Below, piece by piece: positions 53,888 through 64,000 of a stretch of DNA of 64,000 nt (the first letter of the stretch is position 1; every line of letters begins with the position of its first letter). The DNA comes from Mycobacterium sp. MS1601 (GTDB lineage: Bacteria > Actinomycetota > Actinomycetes > Mycobacteriales > Mycobacteriaceae), in assembly GCF_001984215.1 (NCBI RefSeq), contig NZ_CP019420.1:1240001-1304000 (forward strand), written 5' to 3'. Both the position numbers and the translations under genes were made by a program. Under the pieces are notes generated by a model. The model ran no database searches. It saw nothing but the letters and a program-made list of their open reading frames with translations, and was not told the origin of the DNA.

Positions 53888-53907
53888 AAAACCCTACTCA
53901 AACTCTG

Positions 53908-53954
53908 TGGAGCTAAGGGGAATCGAACCCCTGACCTTCTCGATGCGAACGAGA
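53908..53954 (-). tRNA. 3' fragment of tRNA-Ala(CGC), element attachment site
   Basis: Read on the minus strand: anticodon stem-loop TCTCG-TTCGCAT-CGAGA (anticodon CGC), variable AGGTC, T-arm AGGGG-TTCGATT-CCCCT, acceptor TAGCTCC and discriminator A. U70 in the acceptor strand is the alanine identity position. The D-arm and 5' acceptor strand are missing. This is the duplicated 3' end left by an integrase that targets this tRNA gene; the intact copy should lie beyond the right edge. Confidence 0.85.
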
Positions 53955-54561
53955 CGACATGGACTTTCGGGGATGTTGGGATAGTTGGCTCGGTTAAGTA
54001 TTTGCAGGTCAGCAGGTTGCAACGGTTGGCGAGCGTTGAGCATTGCCGGAGCTACTGCGGACGGACTGCGGACACGCGCATGTAGGCCGAGGTTGACTGG
54101 GCCGCCATACTCCACAAGTTCCAGCGCCTTGACAGCCAGTCGCGCGTCCAAGACTCATCGGTGAATGCGTCGACCGCACCTTACTTCCTGTGTAGCGCGC
54201 GGAATGCCGGCTGCCCTATCCGGACCCGGGCCTGCCGCGACGTAGGTCCTCTGGCGAGAATCTGATCGCAGGCGATTACGAGCGACACAGAATGCGCGGC
54301 TCCGTTACCGCAACCCAGGCGGATACAAACCGGGGCCAGTTCGAATCGACCGGATGATGTCCTCAGATTACGTGGCGAGCTACGCAAGGTAGCGTCATCA
54401 AGCAATCCGGCTAGATCCAACCTTGCTGGTGGTCTGTTTGGTAGTGCACGACTTAACGATCCGCCCGTAGGTACGGCGAACTCATGGTGGCAGTCGCATG
54501 AAGCGCAAATGCTCTGCCAGCACAAGGATCCCAAGGGAATCGTGCCAACTACGACCCGCGC
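53955..54561. other. Left end of the mobile element, no clear gene
   Basis: About 600 bases with lower GC content than the chromosome to the left. A minus-strand reading frame at 54181-54534 (117 codons, Arg/Ser/Ala-rich) and another at 53894-54151 have no recognisable domain; the second runs through the tRNA fragment and is certainly spurious there. I regard the stretch as element-end sequence or decayed genes. Confidence 0.5.
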
Positions 54562-54887: not shown

Positions 54888-55085
54888 TCAGCACTCGCAG
54901 CCGAGACCGTCTTGGTCGCGGTCAAGCTTGGCCTGGTAGTAGGGCGAATCCGACGGAATGTTGCAGTGGCCGTTGGCTTTCGCTTCCGAACAGTTTGCAT
55001 AAGGAACGGCGTTAGCGATGACCTGCGGTGACAGAGTTCCGATTCCGGCAACGATAAGGCCGACGACAAGGGTACGAACTAGCAT
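54888..55085 (-). CDS. Secreted Excalibur calcium-binding domain protein
   Basis: 65 residues. Signal peptide, then the Excalibur motif: PYANCSEAKANGHCNIPSD and LDRDQDGLGCEC with the DxDxDGxxCE calcium loop. Such proteins are exported and probably bind calcium. GAGGACC precedes ATG 55085. It forms a two-gene unit with the DUF732 gene. Confidence 0.85.
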   Translation of the reverse strand: MLVRTLVVGLIVAGIGTLSPQVIANAVPYANCSEAKANGHCNIPSDSPYYQAKLDRDQDGLGCEC

Positions 55086-55784
55086 GTTGGTCCTCTAAGT
55101 GAAGTCATTGGGTGTGGAGGGGGCGGTTGACGCCCCGCTTTCGAGAGAGTTCTATAGCGGCGTTTCGAAGGCAGGAAAGCCTTGCCCCGAACGAGCAACG
55201 GGCGCATCTGTTGGGCCGACACAAACCCATTGCACACATTTCGGCAGCGAGTTACTTAAGGCGTCGCATTCTGGAACCCTTCGCCGCAAGGCTCCGTCCG
55301 ATCCGACTCCAAACCACCGGCACAGAGAGTAGAGGTGTCGTAGCCAAGCTCCGGAGACCGACGTGGTGCTTAGGCTGCCATCGGCGTTAGCCGCTGCCGC
55401 TAACCGCCCACTACGAACGCATCGCTGGACGACGCTAAAGACATTTAACCAAGATATTTACCCCCTCGTAAACTTTGGTGCCAGGGCAGTATTACATACT
55501 CATTCCACATTTGCTACATCTGCATCGACGGTTCACGTCTTCCGATCCTGACACTGGTTCGCGGTCATCCGCCCATTTGCTCCCAAACGGATCGAGGCGC
55601 TTGCGACCTTGCAACATGCAGAGACAGGAGGTGATCAGGGGTGCTTCGTAGGCGATCTTGGAGAGAGAGAAGCCGCTGGCCGAGTTAGGCGCTCACAGGA
55701 CAGCGGAATGGGGTACCCCCCACCCCCCTCGCCTGAGCGCCAAGAAGCCGCGCACCGAACACGGTTCGGCCTAGCTCCGCAGCG
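55086..55784. other. 700-base stretch without a recognisable gene
   Basis: Only short frames without family signatures are present. It contains an AT-rich segment (55436-55520) and a GC-rich stem (GCGTTAGC / GCTAACCGC, 55384-55407). It may hold the promoter for the leftward Excalibur unit and degraded sequence. I see no RNA gene or repeat I can support. Confidence 0.5.
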
Positions 55785-56186
55785 CTAATATGAGCCGTCT
55801 GCACAACCGGCGGGCGGGTTCGGCAACGTGCATGGGTGCGGCTCGGGCGGACCTGACGGCGGAGGCGGCGTGCTGAGCGACTTAATCCACGGCCACACGT
55901 CTGGACACATCGTGTTCGCGGCTGCGGTCATGATTATGGTTTTCTCGTGCGCGGTCCAGGTTCCGAAACTGTTCAGTTGACTAGCGAGCGCAGGCCCGTA
56001 GGTGCGGGCGCGCATCCCATGACAGGCAACCTTGCCAGCGTCGATCATGTCCAAGATGTTGGCATAGTAGATCCCGCTGCCGTCCACGGCTGAAATGAAG
56101 TCGTACTCGTCAGCATGGGCGGGTGAAGCTGCAATCCCACTGCAAGCCACCGCCGCTACTCCGGCAAGCATCGCCCGACCGAACAT
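55785..56186 (-). CDS. Secreted DUF732-like protein with Pro-rich tail
   Basis: 133 residues. Signal peptide MFGRAMLAGVAAVACSGIAASPAHA-D, a helical core (EYDFISAVDGSGIYYANILDMIDAGKVACHGMRA; NTMCPDVWPW) like DUF732, then a proline-rich C-terminus with two cysteines. ATG 56186 follows GGGGGTG; longer in-frame starts exist but lack a signal peptide. Function unknown. Confidence 0.7.
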   Translation of the reverse strand: MFGRAMLAGVAAVACSGIAASPAHADEYDFISAVDGSGIYYANILDMIDAGKVACHGMRARTYGPALASQLNSFGTWTAHEKTIIMTAAANTMCPDVWPWIKSLSTPPPPSGPPEPHPCTLPNPPAGCADGSY

Positions 56187-56416
56187 GACACCCCCGAACT
56201 GTCCTATTTTGCTAGCTAAGCATACGCACGTTGATCTCAACCGCATGCGTCAAGGTGAGGCACTCTAGTAGCCAGCGGCAAGAACGACGTCGAATCGTTG
56301 CCCTGCCTGCCACCGATGTTGCCTCAGTGTCTCGACGTCGGCTCCTCCGGGACATGCATACGGTGAGACAGCTCGGACATCGTGGCAGACATTCTTCTGC
56401 TCCTTCGCGACTGAGT

Positions 56417-56890
56417 TCAGTCGCTCTTCTGGAGCAGGAGGCCGATCTGGGTTGTCTTGGAGGTTGGAGTTCCAGCGGGCGGGTCTTGAGAAATCACCAC
56501 CCAATTCCATGGATTCCAAACGCTTTTTCCATTGGTCGTCTTGTATCCGATGTCAGTAAAGCCGGCGTCGCATAGAGCTCCGGTCGCATCTGCAAAGCTG
56601 CTGTACACAACATCAGGAACCACAGCGGTCCCCTGCTTCGGTGTCGTGCAGTCAGAGGCAGGTTCTGGCGCTTCCGATGTAGTCGTTGGCAAGGTTGTGG
56701 TTGTGGTCGTCGTTGTTGTGGTCGGCAGTTCCAACGGCGCAGGAGCTGTCGAGTACACGGTTACGACTGACGTCGACGTCTGAGTAATCGTGTCCATCGC
56801 GACGTCCGCTGGTGCCCCACAAGACGCCAGTCCGAACGATGCGGCTAACCCGAGAGCTACCGTTACCGACGCGCTTTTGACCAACTTCAT
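56417..56890 (-). CDS. PASTA-domain lipoprotein
   Basis: 157 residues. Signal peptide with lipobox LASC (Cys24), a Thr-rich linker with ten consecutive Thr, then a PASTA-like domain (VVPDVVYSSFADATGALCDAGFTDIGYKT; ISQDPPAGT). PASTA domains bind peptidoglycan or beta-lactam-like ligands. ATG 56890 follows GGGGGTTT. Part of the island's set of exported proteins. The 230 bases between this gene and the DUF732-like gene hold no supported feature. Confidence 0.75.
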   Translation of the reverse strand: MKLVKSASVTVALGLAASFGLASCGAPADVAMDTITQTSTSVVTVYSTAPAPLELPTTTTTTTTTTLPTTTSEAPEPASDCTTPKQGTAVVPDVVYSSFADATGALCDAGFTDIGYKTTNGKSVWNPWNWVVISQDPPAGTPTSKTTQIGLLLQKSD

Positions 56891-56958
56891 GAAACCCCCG
56901 AAGTGCAATGCAGGACTGTAATGCCTGCACATTTCACCACAGCCGACGACCACGACTC

Positions 56959-57093
56959 TTAGGTGTCGGCAAGCACCCGATAGACGGTGGCCCTACTGAC
57001 ACCCAGTGCCGCAGCAATGGTGGTCGCGGACTCGCCACTGGCGTGCATACGCTGCGCCAGGGCTGATTTAGATGCGTCCAGCACCTTTGGGAC
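56959..57093 (-). pseudogene. Serine-resolvase C-terminal fragment
   Basis: Minus-strand frame ending TAA 56959-56961 encodes VLDASKSALAQRMHASGESATTIAAALGVSRATVYRVLADT: the HTH_7 DNA-binding domain of a serine resolvase/invertase. The catalytic domain is absent, and upstream sequence (57094-57155) shows only a frameshifted trace of the linker. It marks an older transposon within the element. Confidence 0.7.
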
Positions 57094-57155
57094 CTGCAGC
57101 CAACCGCGAAACGCGCTCTACGCCTCGGAGACCTGGTTTCGCTCCGTCGACCGAA

Positions 57156-58754
57156 CTACCCCGATAGGTACTCGATTACCGCCATATGAGCGGCATTCCT
57201 CATCTGCCGAGCGCGCACCTCGCCGACATAATGCAGCTTCTTGAAGCTTTCTTCGTCGGTATTAAGGACTTCGCCAATCGTGCTTAGCTCAAGCTCAGAA
57301 AGCTTCGACCGTAGAAATGCTGTTAGATCGAGGCTGGAAATAGGTGATGTCAGCCTCGCTTCGAGCGCTACGTTCCCATCCTGCTCAAGCTGTTGTAGCG
57401 AGAAGTCCTGAATCGATCGATAAGCACCATGATTTGCGCCAAACTCGACCATTCGTCGCTTGTCCAACGAACCTCTTAGCCGCCGGCCATATGAAATTGG
57501 GCTAGCGTCCTGCGCCAAGTTGCAACCGACGTTGACCATATAGCGAGTGCCTACCTCACTCCTCGTCGCCCTTATGCCGGCCGTTCCTTCTTGCAAGATT
57601 CCGCTATAACACAGCAACCGAAGTGCCTCACGCACTACTTGCGGAGCATCGCGGTGAATCCAGATTGCCGAACTCGCCTCGGTTTCTTTCTGATTTCTCG
57701 CATGCAAAGCAGGGAGTACTTCGTTTTCAAGAAAGTTGCGACCCCAATCGATTAGCGTGCGATGGCCGGGGTACCTTTCAGCGAGCGTCGAGTGTTCGGC
57801 CCAAATCTCTTCGCGATAATATTCGCGAATCGTGCTCTGCGCTGAGTTCTGCCGCAACGGGGTACTTGCAGTTAAAGTCTTTAACAGAATTCTCGGGTTT
57901 CCGGTCGCCGCGAAAGCTAGAATGTCGAAGATCTCTCCATACTGTTCGATATCTTTTCGACGGCTGGGATCCTGACGGAAAACGATTTCGCGCATCGCAT
58001 TCGCATATGACGCATCCACGACGTTGCGTTCGATATCGAGCACCGCCGCGTCATGAGTAGGTTGAAATGATTCACCGTAGGATGTAGCGCCAGGATAAAC
58101 AGCAGCCTTGACGGATAGATAGGGACTTCGAAGATCGCGCATCAACGTGAAAAACTGCCGCTGCTGCTCGGGAATAAAGACATGTGCTGCTTCGTCAACG
58201 AGCAGCGCGATCCTTGCAACTCCTATATCGTCGCATAGATCCTCAATTGCATATCGGATTGCTTCTGGCTCAGGAGCACCGCTTATATCCTCAGACGGTT
58301 TATCTTTTGACCAGAATTGTTCAAAGACCGAAGTAAGTCGCTCCATCAATGTTGGCCCCTCGGACACCTGCGACGCTTGTGTGCCTGCTAGTGCTGCGAG
58401 GGCTGAGCTTTCTGGAACTTTGAGCCCGTACGAGGTAATGGACCTTTGGACGGAACTAGTAATTTTCGCGGTCATCCAGGGTAGAAAATTGTGTTGGTCC
58501 TGCTTAATCAGGCCAGCACGCGCGAACGTCAAATAGACCGGCAGCACGGCTTCTGTCTCGAAGCTAGCTTTCATCTCGGCCTCTGCCACGCGCAGGAGAA
58601 ATGATTTGCCAACACCCCTGCTGCCGCGGAGTAGCACTGCACTCCGCCCTTTGATAGCGTCGATTATCCTTCGGTCGCCGCTTGTCTCAACGAAGTACTT
58701 AGAAACTTCTTCGAGGCGAAGATCTTCGGTTCGGAAAAATAGCTCATTAGTCAT
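57156..58754 (-). CDS. P-loop ATPase with C-terminal helix-hairpin-helix
   Basis: 532 residues. Walker A GSRGVGKS (44-51), Walker B ALLVDEAA (183-190, Asp187/Glu188), an AAA/ORC-like or STAND-like ATPase core, a central winged-helix-like region, and a C-terminal HhH (STIGEVLNTDEESFKKLHYVGEVRARQM) resembling the RNA polymerase alpha CTD. Last gene of a four-gene operon; ATG 58754 overlaps the preceding stop. Lower GC content than flanking chromosome. It may act as the sensor or motor of the system. Confidence 0.75.
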   Translation of the reverse strand: MTNELFFRTEDLRLEEVSKYFVETSGDRRIIDAIKGRSAVLLRGSRGVGKSFLLRVAEAEMKASFETEAVLPVYLTFARAGLIKQDQHNFLPWMTAKITSSVQRSITSYGLKVPESSALAALAGTQASQVSEGPTLMERLTSVFEQFWSKDKPSEDISGAPEPEAIRYAIEDLCDDIGVARIALLVDEAAHVFIPEQQRQFFTLMRDLRSPYLSVKAAVYPGATSYGESFQPTHDAAVLDIERNVVDASYANAMREIVFRQDPSRRKDIEQYGEIFDILAFAATGNPRILLKTLTASTPLRQNSAQSTIREYYREEIWAEHSTLAERYPGHRTLIDWGRNFLENEVLPALHARNQKETEASSAIWIHRDAPQVVREALRLLCYSGILQEGTAGIRATRSEVGTRYMVNVGCNLAQDASPISYGRRLRGSLDKRRMVEFGANHGAYRSIQDFSLQQLEQDGNVALEARLTSPISSLDLTAFLRSKLSELELSTIGEVLNTDEESFKKLHYVGEVRARQMRNAAHMAVIEYLSG

Positions 58755-59464
58755 CCGTTACTAACTCCACCTAGACGGCTCCGAATCTGGGATATATGGT
58801 TGAACCGTGTTAACAACATCGTGCGGAGATCATCATTAGCTTTGTCGTTTGCAATATCACCGTACCGAACATACAAGACAAAAAGTACAACTTCGGTAGC
58901 TTGCTTTGCTTTCTCACACCATTCCGTTAACACGTCGGAAGAATATTCTAACGTGGTAGGGAGTCGCTCACTATCCTTATGCTTACCATGGATGAACTGT
59001 GAGCAATAGCGATAACATGCCTGCGCCCTCCGGCTATGATCAGTCGCGTCCATCATCAAGTCGGGTGCAAACTCGGAGACAAACATGCCTGATAAAATTC
59101 CTGTTTCAGAATTTAAGGCACTCGACCATGAAAAGTCGAATCTGTCAGACACCCAGCGCCGCCGTTCGAGCTCGTTGACTGAGAAATAGACCGCAGCAAA
59201 ATTTAGCTCTAGAAACAGACGTAGAGAAGCGAAAGCCTGCCGGTACAATCCGGACGCTGCACTGTATTCGGCAAGAGCAAGTTCCCTGCGAGCTGTGACC
59301 ATCATGGGGACGGTAGGGCCGTCAAGGTGGTTCAGCCAGAGGACGAGATCGGCGTCGCCTTGGTGAACTTCGCCCAGTTGAATCTGGTGGGATGCGAGCG
59401 TGCTTTGACGGCATTTGTCGCTTGCATCAGCCAGCAGAGTTAGGTGCGCTTCGATGCCGGCCAT
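58751..59464 (-). CDS. HEPN-like helical protein
   Basis: 237 residues, all-helical by appearance. The stretch ACYRYCSQFIHGK has the HEPN-type arrangement R-phi-X5-H (Arg152, His159), and its flanks (LRLFLELNFAAVYFSVNELERRRW; TLEYSSDVLTEWCEKA) fit proteins with a Y-x-x-x-S-x-x-x-H-G motif. HEPN domains with this motif are often RNases; here catalysis is inferred only. It overlaps both neighbours. Confidence 0.55.
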   Translation of the reverse strand: MAGIEAHLTLLADASDKCRQSTLASHQIQLGEVHQGDADLVLWLNHLDGPTVPMMVTARRELALAEYSAASGLYRQAFASLRLFLELNFAAVYFSVNELERRRWVSDRFDFSWSSALNSETGILSGMFVSEFAPDLMMDATDHSRRAQACYRYCSQFIHGKHKDSERLPTTLEYSSDVLTEWCEKAKQATEVVLFVLYVRYGDIANDKANDDLRTMLLTRFNHISQIRSRLGGVSNG

Positions 59465-59901
59465 TGAGACACCCTAGCCACTAAGTGCTGACGCAGTGAC
59501 GTAACAGGCACTCCTACATATGCGTAGCTCTGCGGTGGTACGCCGGAGGGAAGCAGCTCGGCAATGTGGGCGGGGCTGCGCAGTCTTACAGCTTTGCGGA
59601 TGCCGATACCCGCCCCAGTGTGGCTGTCGGCGTAGTACCGGTCAAAGTCGGCTCGGTCGATGCAGCCCACATCGGAGAATTTTCGCCAAAGGTCAGTCGG
59701 TTTAGCGGTGTGGATGGCTCCCACTTCGAAGTAGCCGATCACCTTCCTGACGGGAGCGGTGGCGTAGACCCAGACGACCGTCACGTCGTCGGCAAGACGA
59801 CGTTTGCGAAACTCAACCTTCTTGCGCCCGTCCATAATTGCCTCCGCGAACTGCGGATGCACGGACATAACTACATGGCGTCCAGTTGCTGATGCACCCA
59901 T
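59440..59901 (-). CDS. ASCH-domain protein
   Basis: 153 residues. VVMSVHPQFAEAIMDGRKKVEFRKR contains the ASCH motif G-x-K-x-x-E-x-R, followed by WVYATAPVRKVIGYFEVG. ASCH is a PUA-like fold thought to bind RNA or modified nucleotides. ATG 59901 is used because GGAGG lies upstream; it overlaps the end of the PIN-GNAT-EVE gene by 31 bases. Its stop overlaps the next gene by 25 bases. Confidence 0.82.
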   Translation of the reverse strand: MGASATGRHVVMSVHPQFAEAIMDGRKKVEFRKRRLADDVTVVWVYATAPVRKVIGYFEVGAIHTAKPTDLWRKFSDVGCIDRADFDRYYADSHTGAGIGIRKAVRLRSPAHIAELLPSGVPPQSYAYVGVPVTSLRQHLVARVSQWPASKRT

Positions 59902-61373
59902 CGGGTACCTGCCTCCTTTACTTTGGTGACGGTTTGCGGCGGCGCTTTCAGGACGTCGTGAGCTTGAAGCTCTGCCAATGTCCATTCAGGGTCAACGATG
60001 CGATCTTGCCGGAAGAGGATGACAAGCACCTGCGAGCTGTGGGATGCCAGTTCGGCTATGTCAGCAGGTCCGTATACGGTTCTTCCACCAACCAAGTTCA
60101 GTACTTCCTCGGGTGAGGACGTCCGAAAGGTCTCCTCGACCACTCCAATTACAGATACGGCCTGAATCCCTGAGCGGTAGAACAGAATCGCGTCTCCTGG
60201 CTGAACCTGCTTTGTGGGCGCGTTGCATAGGTACGCTTTCCGGAGCGCGTTACCCCATGGATGCGTCGCGCCATCCAGCCCAGGAATCATGAGCTGCTCA
60301 TCCTCGGGTATGCACTCGGGGAATAACTGATCGTGCCAGTGCTCGATGATTGGTATGACAAACACGCTGGCGTCACCCGACACCGCGGGTGGGCCGTACG
60401 CGATGTGGAAGTCTAACGGTGACAAGGAGGTATCGCGGGGCTGGTAGTGCTTGGCAAGGACGATCTCGCCGCGCGCCGACTTGCCAGCGCCGTAATACCC
60501 AAACATTCCCATGAAATCGATGAGCGGTTGGTGGTGCTCCCAGACCTCGACGTAGGCGCTTCCGACGCGGTGTTCATGGTGAGAGCGCAGAACGGCTTTG
60601 AGCAGAAGTTCTCCGTAGCGGTGTCCGCGAAAGTCTGGTTCCACCTTGAAGGTCGAAATCTTCGTGATGGGCTGAGGTAAGCCGTACGGACATTCAGAAA
60701 CGGGTTCGTTGGTCTTCAAGATAGCGATGGCGGCATAGATGCCACTGTCCTCGGCGATGACGAAACATTCGCGGTTCGGTGAATCCCCACGTACCTTGTC
60801 AATCCACGTATCGAAGCCTTCGTAATCGTCTCTGATGCTGGCAAAAATGTCCTGGTCGAGATCGAGAGCATAGGACTCTTTCGGCGTCACCTTCGGTGGA
60901 GGTTCGACGACGGTCGGTTCAAATGCTTCCAGCATTGCCACGGCATCGGCGAGCGTAAGGACGCGATCACCAAGTCCGACCCTCTTTGCCCGCCTGCCCA
61001 GGCCCGCGTCATCAGTGACAAGAAAGTTCACGGCGTTTGCGTCCAGTGCCGCCAAGATCCGCAAGTCGCGATGATCGTTGGAGTCCACAACGACCGGACC
61101 CAATTCATCCTGGAGGCGAGCACTGATTGGTACCTCAGCGAGCATCGCGATCTTGTCGAGCTCGGCAATCCGCTGCGTCGCGCGTGTCCTATCCTTGCCC
61201 TCGGCAAGCTCATCCCTTGTAGCGGGATGGACGAATACGAGATTGCGTTGCTTCATCACCAGCCGCATGAACGTGGCTGCTGGCCCAAGGCCGGGTTCTA
61301 TCTGTCCATCAAACGGCTCAAGAGCAATGAATGCGTTGGTGTCGAGCAGAAATCGGGTTGGCGACGTTGCCAC
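59871..61373 (-). CDS. PIN-GNAT-EVE three-domain fusion protein
   Basis: 500 residues. PIN nuclease domain at 1-150 (FLLDTNAF Asp11, RDEL Glu55, Asp99/Asp103, TDDAGL Asp121); GNAT domain at 165-310 (TFKVEPDFRGHRYGELLLKAVL acetyl-CoA loop, EVWEHHQPLIDFMGMFGY); and an EVE/PUA-like domain at 335-500 (PWGNALRKAYLCNAPTKQVQPGDAILFYRSG). Combining an RNase, an acetyltransferase and a modified-nucleotide-binding module suggests a toxin or defence effector. GTG 61373 follows GGAAAGGGGGA. First gene of the operon. Confidence 0.8.
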   Translation of the reverse strand: MATSPTRFLLDTNAFIALEPFDGQIEPGLGPAATFMRLVMKQRNLVFVHPATRDELAEGKDRTRATQRIAELDKIAMLAEVPISARLQDELGPVVVDSNDHRDLRILAALDANAVNFLVTDDAGLGRRAKRVGLGDRVLTLADAVAMLEAFEPTVVEPPPKVTPKESYALDLDQDIFASIRDDYEGFDTWIDKVRGDSPNRECFVIAEDSGIYAAIAILKTNEPVSECPYGLPQPITKISTFKVEPDFRGHRYGELLLKAVLRSHHEHRVGSAYVEVWEHHQPLIDFMGMFGYYGAGKSARGEIVLAKHYQPRDTSLSPLDFHIAYGPPAVSGDASVFVIPIIEHWHDQLFPECIPEDEQLMIPGLDGATHPWGNALRKAYLCNAPTKQVQPGDAILFYRSGIQAVSVIGVVEETFRTSSPEEVLNLVGGRTVYGPADIAELASHSSQVLVILFRQDRIVDPEWTLAELQAHDVLKAPPQTVTKVKEAGTRWVHQQLDAM

Positions 61374-62646: not shown

Positions 62647-62852
62647 GCCGCCGCCCTCAACCGATCAGTGGCCGAAATAAGCGCTGCTGCAAGCTGTTCA
62701 GCTTCGGTGACCGCGAGAAGAATCGCCTGCTCGGGGTGGCCAAGATCCTCCGCGTACAACGCGCCATAGAAAAGGAGCACGGCGACGTAATCTTCCTCCG
62801 CGACGACAATCACGGTCTGGTCCTCTGCGGCAATCCGCTTCACGACGCTCAT
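62643..62852 (-). CDS. Small hypothetical protein of the element
   Basis: 69 residues, acidic and Ala-rich: IAAEDQTVIVVAEEDYVAVLLFYGALYAEDL then helices ending ISATDRLRAAA. No family recognised. Start and stop both overlap the neighbouring genes by four bases, so it is part of the excisionase-RepA operon. Confidence 0.65.
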   Translation of the reverse strand: MSVVKRIAAEDQTVIVVAEEDYVAVLLFYGALYAEDLGHPEQAILLAVTEAEQLAAALISATDRLRAAA

Positions 62853-63034
62853 GCGACGAACTCGCCGCGCCTGGTGTTGCGCTCCTGCTCATCGACCCAC
62901 GCAAGGACATCAGTACGGCGGTACCGCACACGACCAGCCAATCGAAACGACATCGGCCCACGCTCCATCGAGCGGTAGTACCGCAGGGTGCCTACCGGAA
63001 TGCCCAATTCGTTCGAAACTTCTCGGGTGGTCAT
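62849..63034 (-). CDS. Excisionase/AlpA-like helix-turn-helix protein
   Basis: 61 residues from ATG 63034 (GAGG at eight bases); ATG 63064 is an in-frame alternative. MTTREVSNELGIPVGTLRYYRSMERGPMSFRLAGRVRYRRTDVLAWVDEQ is a MerR-like HTH_17 domain, as in excisionases and AlpA regulators of integrative elements. First gene of the leftward maintenance operon, divergent from the XRE-integrase pair. Confidence 0.82.
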   Translation of the reverse strand: MTTREVSNELGIPVGTLRYYRSMERGPMSFRLAGRVRYRRTDVLAWVDEQERNTRRGEFVA

Positions 63035-63098
63035 GAGATCCGCCTCGTCGTTAGTAGCCAACATTCCTCAATCTCATATCGCTTAGCTTTCCAAGCGT

Positions 63099-63119: not shown

Positions 63120-63713
63120 ATGTTAAACGCATGGAGCTTGAAAATTCAAGCCCTAGAGACTTATGGTGTGCCGGTGACTAACCCTGAACCTTGGGCACTC
63201 GCCGCAGTCGAGGGCCAACAGCTTGTCCGTGATCTGCGCGAACAACTCCCTCCTGATACCGCTGACATCTCGATCAACGAAATCGCGCTGGCTCGTCAAC
63301 GACACGAGTCCTGGGAACGTCGATTCGGCGAGCACCTACGTGGCTGGCGACAGGACCGGAACTGGTCGCAGGAGGATGTCGCTGAACGGCTTCGCCGCCA
63401 GGGGTTCGAGATGCACCAAACCACCGTCGCGAAGATTGAACGCGGGGCACGTCCCCTCCGCGTAGCAGAGGCCGCTGCCCTCGCCGAGGTGTTCGAGATG
63501 CCGATTATTACCGTGCTCGGTGTTGAGGCAGCCACCGACTTCGCCGCAAGCCCCGACACGTACCAAAGGGAACTTGAACAGGCCCGAAAGCGCCTCGACC
63601 ACAGCCGCGAGAACCTTCATAGCGTTGCTCAGCAGCACGCTCATCTACTCGCCGAAGTCGAGAAACTACTTCTCCAAATGAATCAGCACAGCTCAGAGAC
63701 AGGTGAGAAATGA
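63120..63713 (+). CDS. XRE-family element repressor
   Basis: 197 residues. The HTH is at about 68-130: LRGWRQDRNWSQEDVAERLRRQGFEMHQTTVAKIERGARPLRVAEAAALAEVF. An N-terminal extension and a C-terminal coiled-coil-like segment (TYQRELEQARKRLDHSRENLHSVAQQHAHLLAEVEKLL) flank it. Stop overlaps the integrase start (ATGA), so the repressor and integrase are co-expressed. ATG 63120 is used; GTG 63168 or 63174 are alternatives. Confidence 0.82.
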   Translation: MLNAWSLKIQALETYGVPVTNPEPWALAAVEGQQLVRDLREQLPPDTADISINEIALARQRHESWERRFGEHLRGWRQDRNWSQEDVAERLRRQGFEMHQTTVAKIERGARPLRVAEAAALAEVFEMPIITVLGVEAATDFAASPDTYQRELEQARKRLDHSRENLHSVAQQHAHLLAEVEKLLLQMNQHSSETGEK

Positions 63714-64000
63714 CCCAGAAGCGCAACCAGCGAGCCGGGGTGGAAGACCGCTGGATGAAGACCTATCGCGATGAAGATGGGGCAGTCCGAAGTATCCCCA
63801 GCGCTAATCACGGCAAGGGGAAGCGTTACCGCGCAAGGTATGTCGACGACGCAGGGCGGGAGCGGGCTAGAGGATTCACACGGAAGTCCGACGCTCAAAA
63901 ATGGCTCGATTCAGAGGTGACGGCCAAGCTGGCTACAGGGACATACATCGAGCCCTCTGCCGGTCGAGTCACGGTTTCGGCTGTGTACCAGTCGTGGTTC
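63710..64000 (+). CDS. Tyrosine-type integrase, N-terminal part (cut by window edge)
   Basis: 97 codons to the window end. GKGKRYRARYVDDAGRERARGFTRKSDAQKWLDSEV is the AP2-like arm-binding domain and TGTYIEPSAGRVTVSAVYQSW the start of the core-binding SAM-like domain of phage-type integrases. It should recombine attachment sites in tRNA-Ala(CGC), whose 3' copy lies at 53908-53954. The catalytic R-H-R-Y part is beyond the window. Confidence 0.88.
   Translation, partial: MTQKRNQRAGVEDRWMKTYRDEDGAVRSIPSANHGKGKRYRARYVDDAGRERARGFTRKSDAQKWLDSEVTAKLATGTYIEPSAGRVTVSAVYQSWF

What the first reader, a model, noticed from the sequence alone, without database searches (positions are those of the whole stretch)
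57156..61373. Four-gene PIN-GNAT-EVE / ASCH / HEPN-like / ATPase operon on a mobile element
Four genes overlap by 4 to 31 bases and read in one direction. Three encode modules linked to RNA cleavage or modified-nucleotide recognition (PIN, EVE, ASCH, HEPN-like), joined with an acetyltransferase and a P-loop ATPase with an HhH tail. The operon is carried on an integrative element as non-maintenance cargo, where defence systems commonly sit. I know of no named defence system with this gene set. Seen: domain motifs, overlaps, location. Inference: defence or toxin function.
Basis: partly seen in the sequence, partly recalled or inferred. Interest (0 to 1): 0.85.

Follow-up and report, generated by a model that had tools for sequence, protein, structure and literature searches.

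The report
Two stacked defence-like gene pairs
What looked like one new four-gene defence operon in a probable mycobacterium appears to be two separate two-gene cassettes side by side on a small mobile element: one is an already predicted toxin-antitoxin type, the other a pair for which I found no name, an ATPase and a putative RNA-cutting HEPN-like protein that occur together in quite different bacteria and viral contigs.

Summary
The four overlapping genes are real and sit on an 11.0-kb tRNA-Ala integrative element. They look like two cassettes, not one system. Genes 1+2 (PIN-GNAT-EVE + ASCH) match PADLOC candidate PDC-M11A/B (E 2.8e-200, 2.7e-45), the predicted toxin-antitoxin type of Bell et al. 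2020; a phage record labels such a pair GevT toxin/GevA antitoxin. Genes 3+4 (HEPN-like + STAND/ORC-CDC6-like ATPase) are a second pair: in 16 of 16 outside records tested one lies next to the other, their distances correlate (r 0.94), and no locus tested outside the window has all four. GC differs, 57-59% against 51-52%. Residues hold: R152 19/20, H159 20/20, Walker A/B 28/28, three PIN aspartates 20/20. A defence-type gene lies next to or near the pair in five of eight mobile loci. Searches gave no name for it. Best reading: an ATPase-gated HEPN RNase, probably phage defence; nothing was assayed, and the HEPN fold match alone is not decisive. Interest moderate.

The parts
59871..61373 (-). 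g1: PIN-GNAT-EVE fusion (500 aa), PDC-M11A / GevT-like predicted toxin
   Evidence: PADLOC PDLC04421 PDC-M11A 2.8e-200 over residues 7-498; Pfam GNAT 9.6e-7, PIN_3 3.6e-4, EVE 0.019
59440..59901 (-). g2: ASCH-domain protein, PDC-M11B / GevA-like predicted antitoxin or regulator
   Evidence: PADLOC PDC-M11B 2.7e-45; AAAGGAGG before ATG 59901
58751..59464 (-). g3: HEPN-like protein (237 aa), putative RNase effector, motif YRxxSxxVHG
57156..58754 (-). g4: STAND/ORC-CDC6-like P-loop ATPase (532 aa) with a tail (about residues 455-514) that weakly resembles the RNA polymerase alpha C-terminal domain
   Evidence: Pfam PF24389 38.5 bits vs cut-off 27; fold; K50, D187, E188 28/28; tail vs alpha subunits E 0.03-0.47
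53905..53956 (+). attL-like 52-bp exact repeat of the tRNA-Ala end; its partner is at 64932-64983, just outside the window
63710..64000 (+). tyrosine integrase of the element (runs on to 64894 beyond the window)
   Evidence: PF00589 6.1e-22; ORF in L002
61598..62575 (-). AAA_25 replication/helicase-like gene of the element (not part of the cargo pairs)
   Evidence: PF13481 1.6e-24; PHROG primase/helicase families
62849..63064 (-). excisionase-like HTH_17 protein of the element
   Evidence: PF12728 6.2e-8
63120..63713 (+). HTH regulator of the element
   Evidence: PF13560 5.6e-11

Best explanation
Two independent two-gene cassettes were stacked in one direction as cargo of an 11-kb tRNA-Ala integrative element. 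Cassette A (g1+g2) is a (PIN)-GNAT-EVE/ASCH toxin-antitoxin-like pair (PDC-M11): g1 the predicted toxin (nuclease plus acetyltransferase with an EVE base reader), g2 its ASCH partner, antitoxin or regulator. Cassette B (g3+g4) is an ATPase-gated HEPN ribonuclease: g4, a STAND/ORC-CDC6-like ATPase with an alpha-CTD-like tail, holds g3 inactive or recruits it, and on an infection cue (probably a DNA or transcription state) changes its nucleotide-dependent assembly so that g3 cuts RNA and growth stops. Shown: gene pairs, pairing in several phyla, co-inheritance, ATPase fold, conserved residues, defence neighbours in part of the loci. Inferred: HEPN RNase activity, gating, trigger, phage defence.
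For: Pairing: 8 of 8 g3-seeded genome loci have g4 next to it and no g1 or g2 in the fetched stretch; 7 of 7 g4-seeded viral contigs have a g3 relative directly upstream and no g1 relative; one plasmid has both. g1 and a g2 relative are neighbours in 10 of 10 genomes or records tested, with no g3 or g4 profile hit. Census: g1 7/401, g3 2/401, g4 2/401, shared only by the own genome. Distances of 16 g3/g4 pairs: Mantel r 0.943, 0 of 5000 permutations as high. GC3 65% in g1/g2, 52-54% in g3/g4. Residues intact. Defence-type neighbours of B: type II RM in L030 and L034, SspC/SspD and an MzaB-like gene in L026, TIR in L033, a deaminase protein in L035. Precedents: RloC, whose ABC ATPase keeps its HEPN nuclease inactive, and HEPN/ParA-like dyads (passages, PMC3710099).
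Confidence: 0.55

Rival explanations
1. g3+g4 is a toxin-antitoxin addiction module that stabilises mobile elements: HEPN RNase toxin, ATPase antitoxin that modifies or sequesters it, with phage defence secondary or absent.
For: Compact pair on viral contigs, a plasmid and this integrative element; HEPN dyads with a ParA/Soj-like ATPase were proposed as toxin-antitoxin with the ATPase as antitoxin (passage, PMC3710099).
Against: g4 is about 530 aa, strongly conserved, and its fold rows include RdrA and BrxC; large for an antitoxin (recalled); defence-type genes near it in five of eight mobile loci.
Confidence: 0.25
2. All four genes act together in one layered system: a modified-base-sensing toxin (EVE/ASCH) with an ATPase-triggered HEPN backup, joined into one transcript by selection.
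For: 25-nt overlap of g2 and g3 in one direction; layered main and backup effectors are proposed for BREX-related systems (passages, PMC12839542).
Against: No other locus tested has all four; different GC; in one relative (G028) the next gene after g2 instead matches PDC-S11.
Confidence: 0.08
3. g3+g4 is not a weapon but a regulator of replication or transcription of mobile elements (ORC/CDC6-like ATPase with alpha-CTD-like tail; g3 a structural helical partner).
For: ORC/CDC6 and TnsC rows in the fold comparison; weak alpha-CTD resemblance of the tail.
Against: Invariant H159 and near-invariant R152; defence-type neighbours.
Confidence: 0.1

Closest known systems
PDC-M11 (PADLOC-DB candidate) and (PIN)-GNAT-EVE/ASCH predicted toxin-antitoxin (Bell, Wolf, Koonin 2020, PMC7641849)
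   Same: g1 and g2 match both models over most of their length; same domain order PIN-GNAT-EVE with an ASCH neighbour.
   Different: Here a second pair follows. An AAA_17 ATPase, often present there, was not seen among the neighbours scanned.
GevT/GevA of Escherichia phage PhiR47_2 (PV340567.1, record annotation only)
   Same: GevT and GevA match the PDC-M11A/B models; GevA is ASCH.
   Different: GevT lacks the PIN part and is 24% identical to g1.
ABC-ATPase-HEPN nucleases PrrC/RloC (passages in PMC3710099)
   Same: An ATPase controlling a HEPN nuclease is the working model for g3+g4.
   Different: Fused to an ABC ATPase; g4 is a separate STAND/ORC-type ATPase.
HEPN (MAE_18760) + ParA/Soj-like ATPase dyads (passage in PMC3710099)
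   Same: Two-gene HEPN + ATPase arrangement.
   Different: Different ATPase family; g3 matched no HEPN family model.
DUF499-centred BREX-related (Hma) systems with HEPN-fused STAND/ORC-CDC6 ATPase (passages in PMC12839542)
   Same: HEPN coupled to an ORC/CDC6-type ATPase.
   Different: Those have methyltransferase and helicase partners; no fixed third partner was recognised beside g3+g4.
RADAR RdrA ATPase
   Different: Partner is HEPN-like, not an adenosine deaminase (RdrB: recalled).

Membership tests
PDC-M11 | M11A and M11B model matches | tested here: met
   PDLC04421 2.8e-200; PDLC04425 2.7e-45
PDC-M11 | A and B adjacent | tested here: met
   window and 10 of 10 relatives; in one (L028) the ASCH gene lies before g1
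PDC-M11 | anti-phage activity | not testable with these tools
   a database candidate; a paper search for PDC-M11 gave none
(PIN)-GNAT-EVE/ASCH toxin-antitoxin | PIN acidic residues | tested here: met
   D11, D103, D122 in 20 of 20 PIN-bearing rows of A3; which residues are catalytic is recalled
(PIN)-GNAT-EVE/ASCH toxin-antitoxin | GNAT domain | tested here: met
   PF00583 29.5 bits vs cut-off 20.7
(PIN)-GNAT-EVE/ASCH toxin-antitoxin | EVE domain by Pfam | tested here: inconclusive
   15.4 bits vs cut-off 23
(PIN)-GNAT-EVE/ASCH toxin-antitoxin | toxicity neutralised by the ASCH protein | not testable with these tools
   GevT/GevA labels are record annotation only
HEPN superfamily (g3) | HEPN fold | tested here: inconclusive
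HEPN superfamily (g3) | Rx4-6H motif | tested here: met
   R152-x6-H159: R 19/20, H 20/20; R in 75 of 79 protein-search hits, own included
HEPN superfamily (g3) | RNase activity | not testable with these tools
   needs an assay
STAND/ORC-CDC6-like ATPase (g4) | family model PF24389 | tested here: met
   38.5 bits vs cut-off 27; best stretch residues 7-64 only
STAND/ORC-CDC6-like ATPase (g4) | Walker A and B | tested here: met
   G44, G49, K50, D187, E188 in 28 of 28
STAND/ORC-CDC6-like ATPase (g4) | fold | tested here: met
DS-41 (NF053860) | equivalog model at cut-off | tested here: not met
   18.3 bits vs 370
HEPN-MNT toxin-antitoxin | minimal nucleotidyltransferase partner | tested here: not met
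   partner is a P-loop ATPase
RADAR | adenosine deaminase partner | tested here: not met
   no deaminase family in g1-g4

The most novel reading that the evidence does not exclude
g3+g4 is an unnamed, widely mobile immune family in which an ORC/CDC6-type ATPase carries an RNA-polymerase-alpha-CTD-like tail and uses it to watch the state of transcription or promoter DNA (for example phage takeover of RNA polymerase), and unleashes a HEPN RNase when that state changes.
Probability: 0.12. Interest if true: 0.72.

Novelty: new variant of a known kind. Interest (0 to 1): 0.5.

Why it matters
It turns an apparent new four-gene system into two testable units. The PIN-GNAT-EVE/ASCH type was predicted to be toxin-antitoxin and said to be experimentally uncharacterised in 2020 (PMC7641849); the window adds a case on a mobile element. 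The HEPN-like/ATPase pair is kept as a unit in Actinomycetota, Clostridia/Bacillales, a cyanobacterial plasmid and viral contigs, with defence-type genes near it in five of eight mobile loci; g3 has no family model and g4 only the broad PF24389. At 2.3 kb it is easy to test.

Tried and rejected
One four-gene system: not supported, because no other locus tested has all four. Matching contig lengths of the protein-search lists (30 shared lengths for g3 and g4, 1 for g3 and g1, 0 for g4 and g1) agrees but is weak: only the best 120 of 352 (g1) and 120 of 1488 (g4) hits are listed, a cluster shows only its longest contig, and equal lengths are not proof of one contig. The one g3/g1 coincidence (2963) was not resolved. 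A g4 relative at 75% identity is named from Mycobacteroides abscessus subsp. bolletii (P0083) and a g1 relative from Mycobacteroides (P0202); I could not look at those loci.

DS-41, RADAR, HEPN-MNT and HEPN/ParA membership were considered and not met. Weak PADLOC matches of g4 or its relatives (PglW, mad8, PDC-S01) are 12-20 bits and were not followed as membership; the PglW one falls on the tail, and PMC12839542 describes an alpha-CTD-like helical domain in PglW (passage). Promoter-like 4 (2.5 expected) and terminator-like 2 (4.6 expected) sites: a shared transcript is neither shown nor excluded.

A clean empty site was not found: in four relatives, of 13 genomes searched, right-flank homology begins within about 22 bases of the tRNA end, but what lies left of it there does not match the window's left flank.

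E. coli genomes hold no DNA match to the L032 pair; phage records no protein match to g4 of the window or of L032. A viral scan with g3 found no relative although one search shows some. An order scan for g4 had 3 of 397 genomes, a phylum scan 1 of 386, own included. Of 26 plasmid and 15 phage records with a g1 match I opened two each. Distant g4-like plasmid ATPases (24-25% identity; two of three opened) follow a methyltransferase gene; not tested for a g3 relative.

Papers: GevT gave 8 unrelated papers, PhiR47 one, whose passage does not mention Gev. Iyer et al. 2013 is not held; known only as cited in PMC7641849. Passages without bearing: PMC12458937, PMC12429752, PMC11811056.
Full report
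What is there. Window 57156-61373 holds four minus-strand genes that overlap by 31, 25 and 4 bases, taking the g2 start with the better ribosome-binding-like site. They are cargo of an integrative element with a tyrosine integrase (63710-64894), HTH regulator, excisionase-like and AAA_25 genes, bounded by exact 52-bp repeats at 53905-53956 and 64932-64983, 11,027 bases apart, the right one over the 3' part of tRNA-Ala(CGC). No relaxase or capsid family was seen among the element proteins scanned; not every ORF was scanned.

Two pairs, not four. PADLOC-DB models assign g1 to PDC-M11A (2.8e-200) and g2 to PDC-M11B (2.7e-45); g3 has none and g4 only a weak PglW match on its tail (0.0037). In 401 genomes of the family g1 occurs in 7 (E<=1e-30), g3 in 2 (1e-10) and g4 in 2 (1e-15), own genome included; only the own genome has both kinds. 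Around g1 relatives (nine complete loci, one genome split over two contigs) a g2 relative is the neighbour in 10 of 10, before g1 in L028 and after it in the rest, and the g3 and g4 profiles hit nothing in these stretches. The eight genome loci found with g3 all have g4 adjacent and no g1 or g2 in the fetched stretch; the seven viral contigs found with g4 all have a g3 relative directly upstream and no g1 relative (g2 not tested); a Planktothrix plasmid has both (g1 not tested by script, none annotated). That is 16 of 16 records; L007, L009 and L010 are close to one another. Loci (L022, L023, L046) repeat the Micromonospora, Amycolatopsis and Williamsia loci, judged by ORF starts and contig length, and are not counted twice. 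Distances of 16 pairs (the window and 15 outside; L010 left out as very like L009) correlate at r 0.943, 0 of 5000 permutations as high. GC is 57.3/59.1% in g1/g2 and 50.6/52.2% in g3/g4, against 67.0% in window 1-53900. In one relative (G028) the next gene after g2 instead matches PDC-S11, so the slot behind g2 can vary. Against a fixed pair: 1488 g4 but 79 g3 relatives in the protein searches; many g4 relatives may have other partners, or g3 diverges faster (identity to the window 20-50% for g3, 33-74% for g4).

Cassette A. Bell, Wolf and Koonin 2020 (PMC7641849; passages) describe GNAT-EVE fusions, often with an N-terminal PIN domain, almost all with an ASCH gene, predict toxin-antitoxin function and state that the modules were not experimentally characterised. 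They also float another role: PIN-GNAT-EVE may degrade acetylated charged tRNAs made by phage GNAT-EVE. A lambda-like phage record annotates GevT toxin and GevA antitoxin; both match PDC-M11A/B; I found no paper on them. ORFD and ORF5 of archaeal prophage psiM100 match too. PIN D11, D103 and D122 are in 20 of 20 PIN-bearing rows. Likely action: PIN and GNAT attack RNA or charged tRNA, EVE and ASCH read modified bases; inferred.

Neighbourhood of cassette B. Of eight mobile loci (seven viral contigs, one plasmid) five have a defence-type gene next to or near the pair: L034 behind a type II methyltransferase and REase; L030 near a convergent type II RM pair; Planktothrix p2 with SspC-SspD upstream and a helicase and MzaB-like gene downstream; L033 with a TIR protein and L035 with a dCMP-deaminase-domain protein downstream. 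L035 also has an ORF upstream whose start resembles the L034 methyltransferase (not scanned). In L029, L031 and L032 none was recognised, and few of their ORFs were scanned. Flanks of L003-L010 were listed, not scanned.

Novelty. HEPN-ATPase combinations are known as PrrC/RloC, DUF499 fusions and ParA dyads (passages of PMC3710099; PMC12839542), and ORC/CDC6 ATPases are called a mainstay of conflict systems (PMC10853773, passage). DefensePredictor validated systems with HEPN domains (PMC13092281, passages); the DS-41 model is not met. I found no description of this pair in searches (1, 24 and 26 papers; 20 of the last listed); I read passages of eight of these papers, and subscription journals are missing, so absence is provisional.

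Verdict. Observation confirmed; one-system interpretation not. Cassette A is a known predicted kind; cassette B a plausible new variant of ATPase-controlled HEPN effectors. I put about 0.9 on the two-cassette anatomy and about 0.5 on ATPase-gated HEPN defence.

Noticed in passing
window 53905-53956 and L002 14933-14984 (window 64932-64983): Exact 52-bp attL/attR-like repeats at tRNA-Ala(CGC) define an element of 11,027 bp.
   Followed up: yes
window 54050-54073 and 64861-64884 (L002 4051-4074, 14862-14885): A perfect 24-bp direct repeat lies inside both ends of the element, one copy in the integrase 3' end; possible integrase arm sites.
   Followed up: no
about window 56957-57110, minus strand: Fragment that looks like the HTH end of a resolvase (label recalled, not scanned) just downstream of g4, apparently a remnant.
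   Followed up: partly
window 54888-56953, minus strand: Three small genes inside the element with Excalibur, DUF732 and PASTA domains.
   Followed up: partly
L024 3956-5384 (PV340567.1): A lambda-like coliphage carries GevT/GevA (PDC-M11A/B type) between cI and kil.
   Followed up: partly
L025 2551-5843 (psiM100): The annotated inserted fragment IFa of archaeal prophage psiM100 covers most of ORFD (PDC-M11A type); its ASCH neighbour ORF5 lies outside and is noted as shared with psiM2.
   Followed up: partly
L026 4266-6623: In a Planktothrix plasmid the HEPN-like/ATPase pair sits between an SspD-type gene and a helicase gene.
   Followed up: yes
L037 2718-6523 and L038 2712-6651: Distant g4-like ATPases on Cupriavidus and Rhizobium plasmids lie between a DNA methyltransferase gene and an unannotated gene.
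   Followed up: no
L042 4912-6072: An Abi_2/AbiD gene is divergent to a PDC-M11A-type gene in a relative of the same family.
   Followed up: partly
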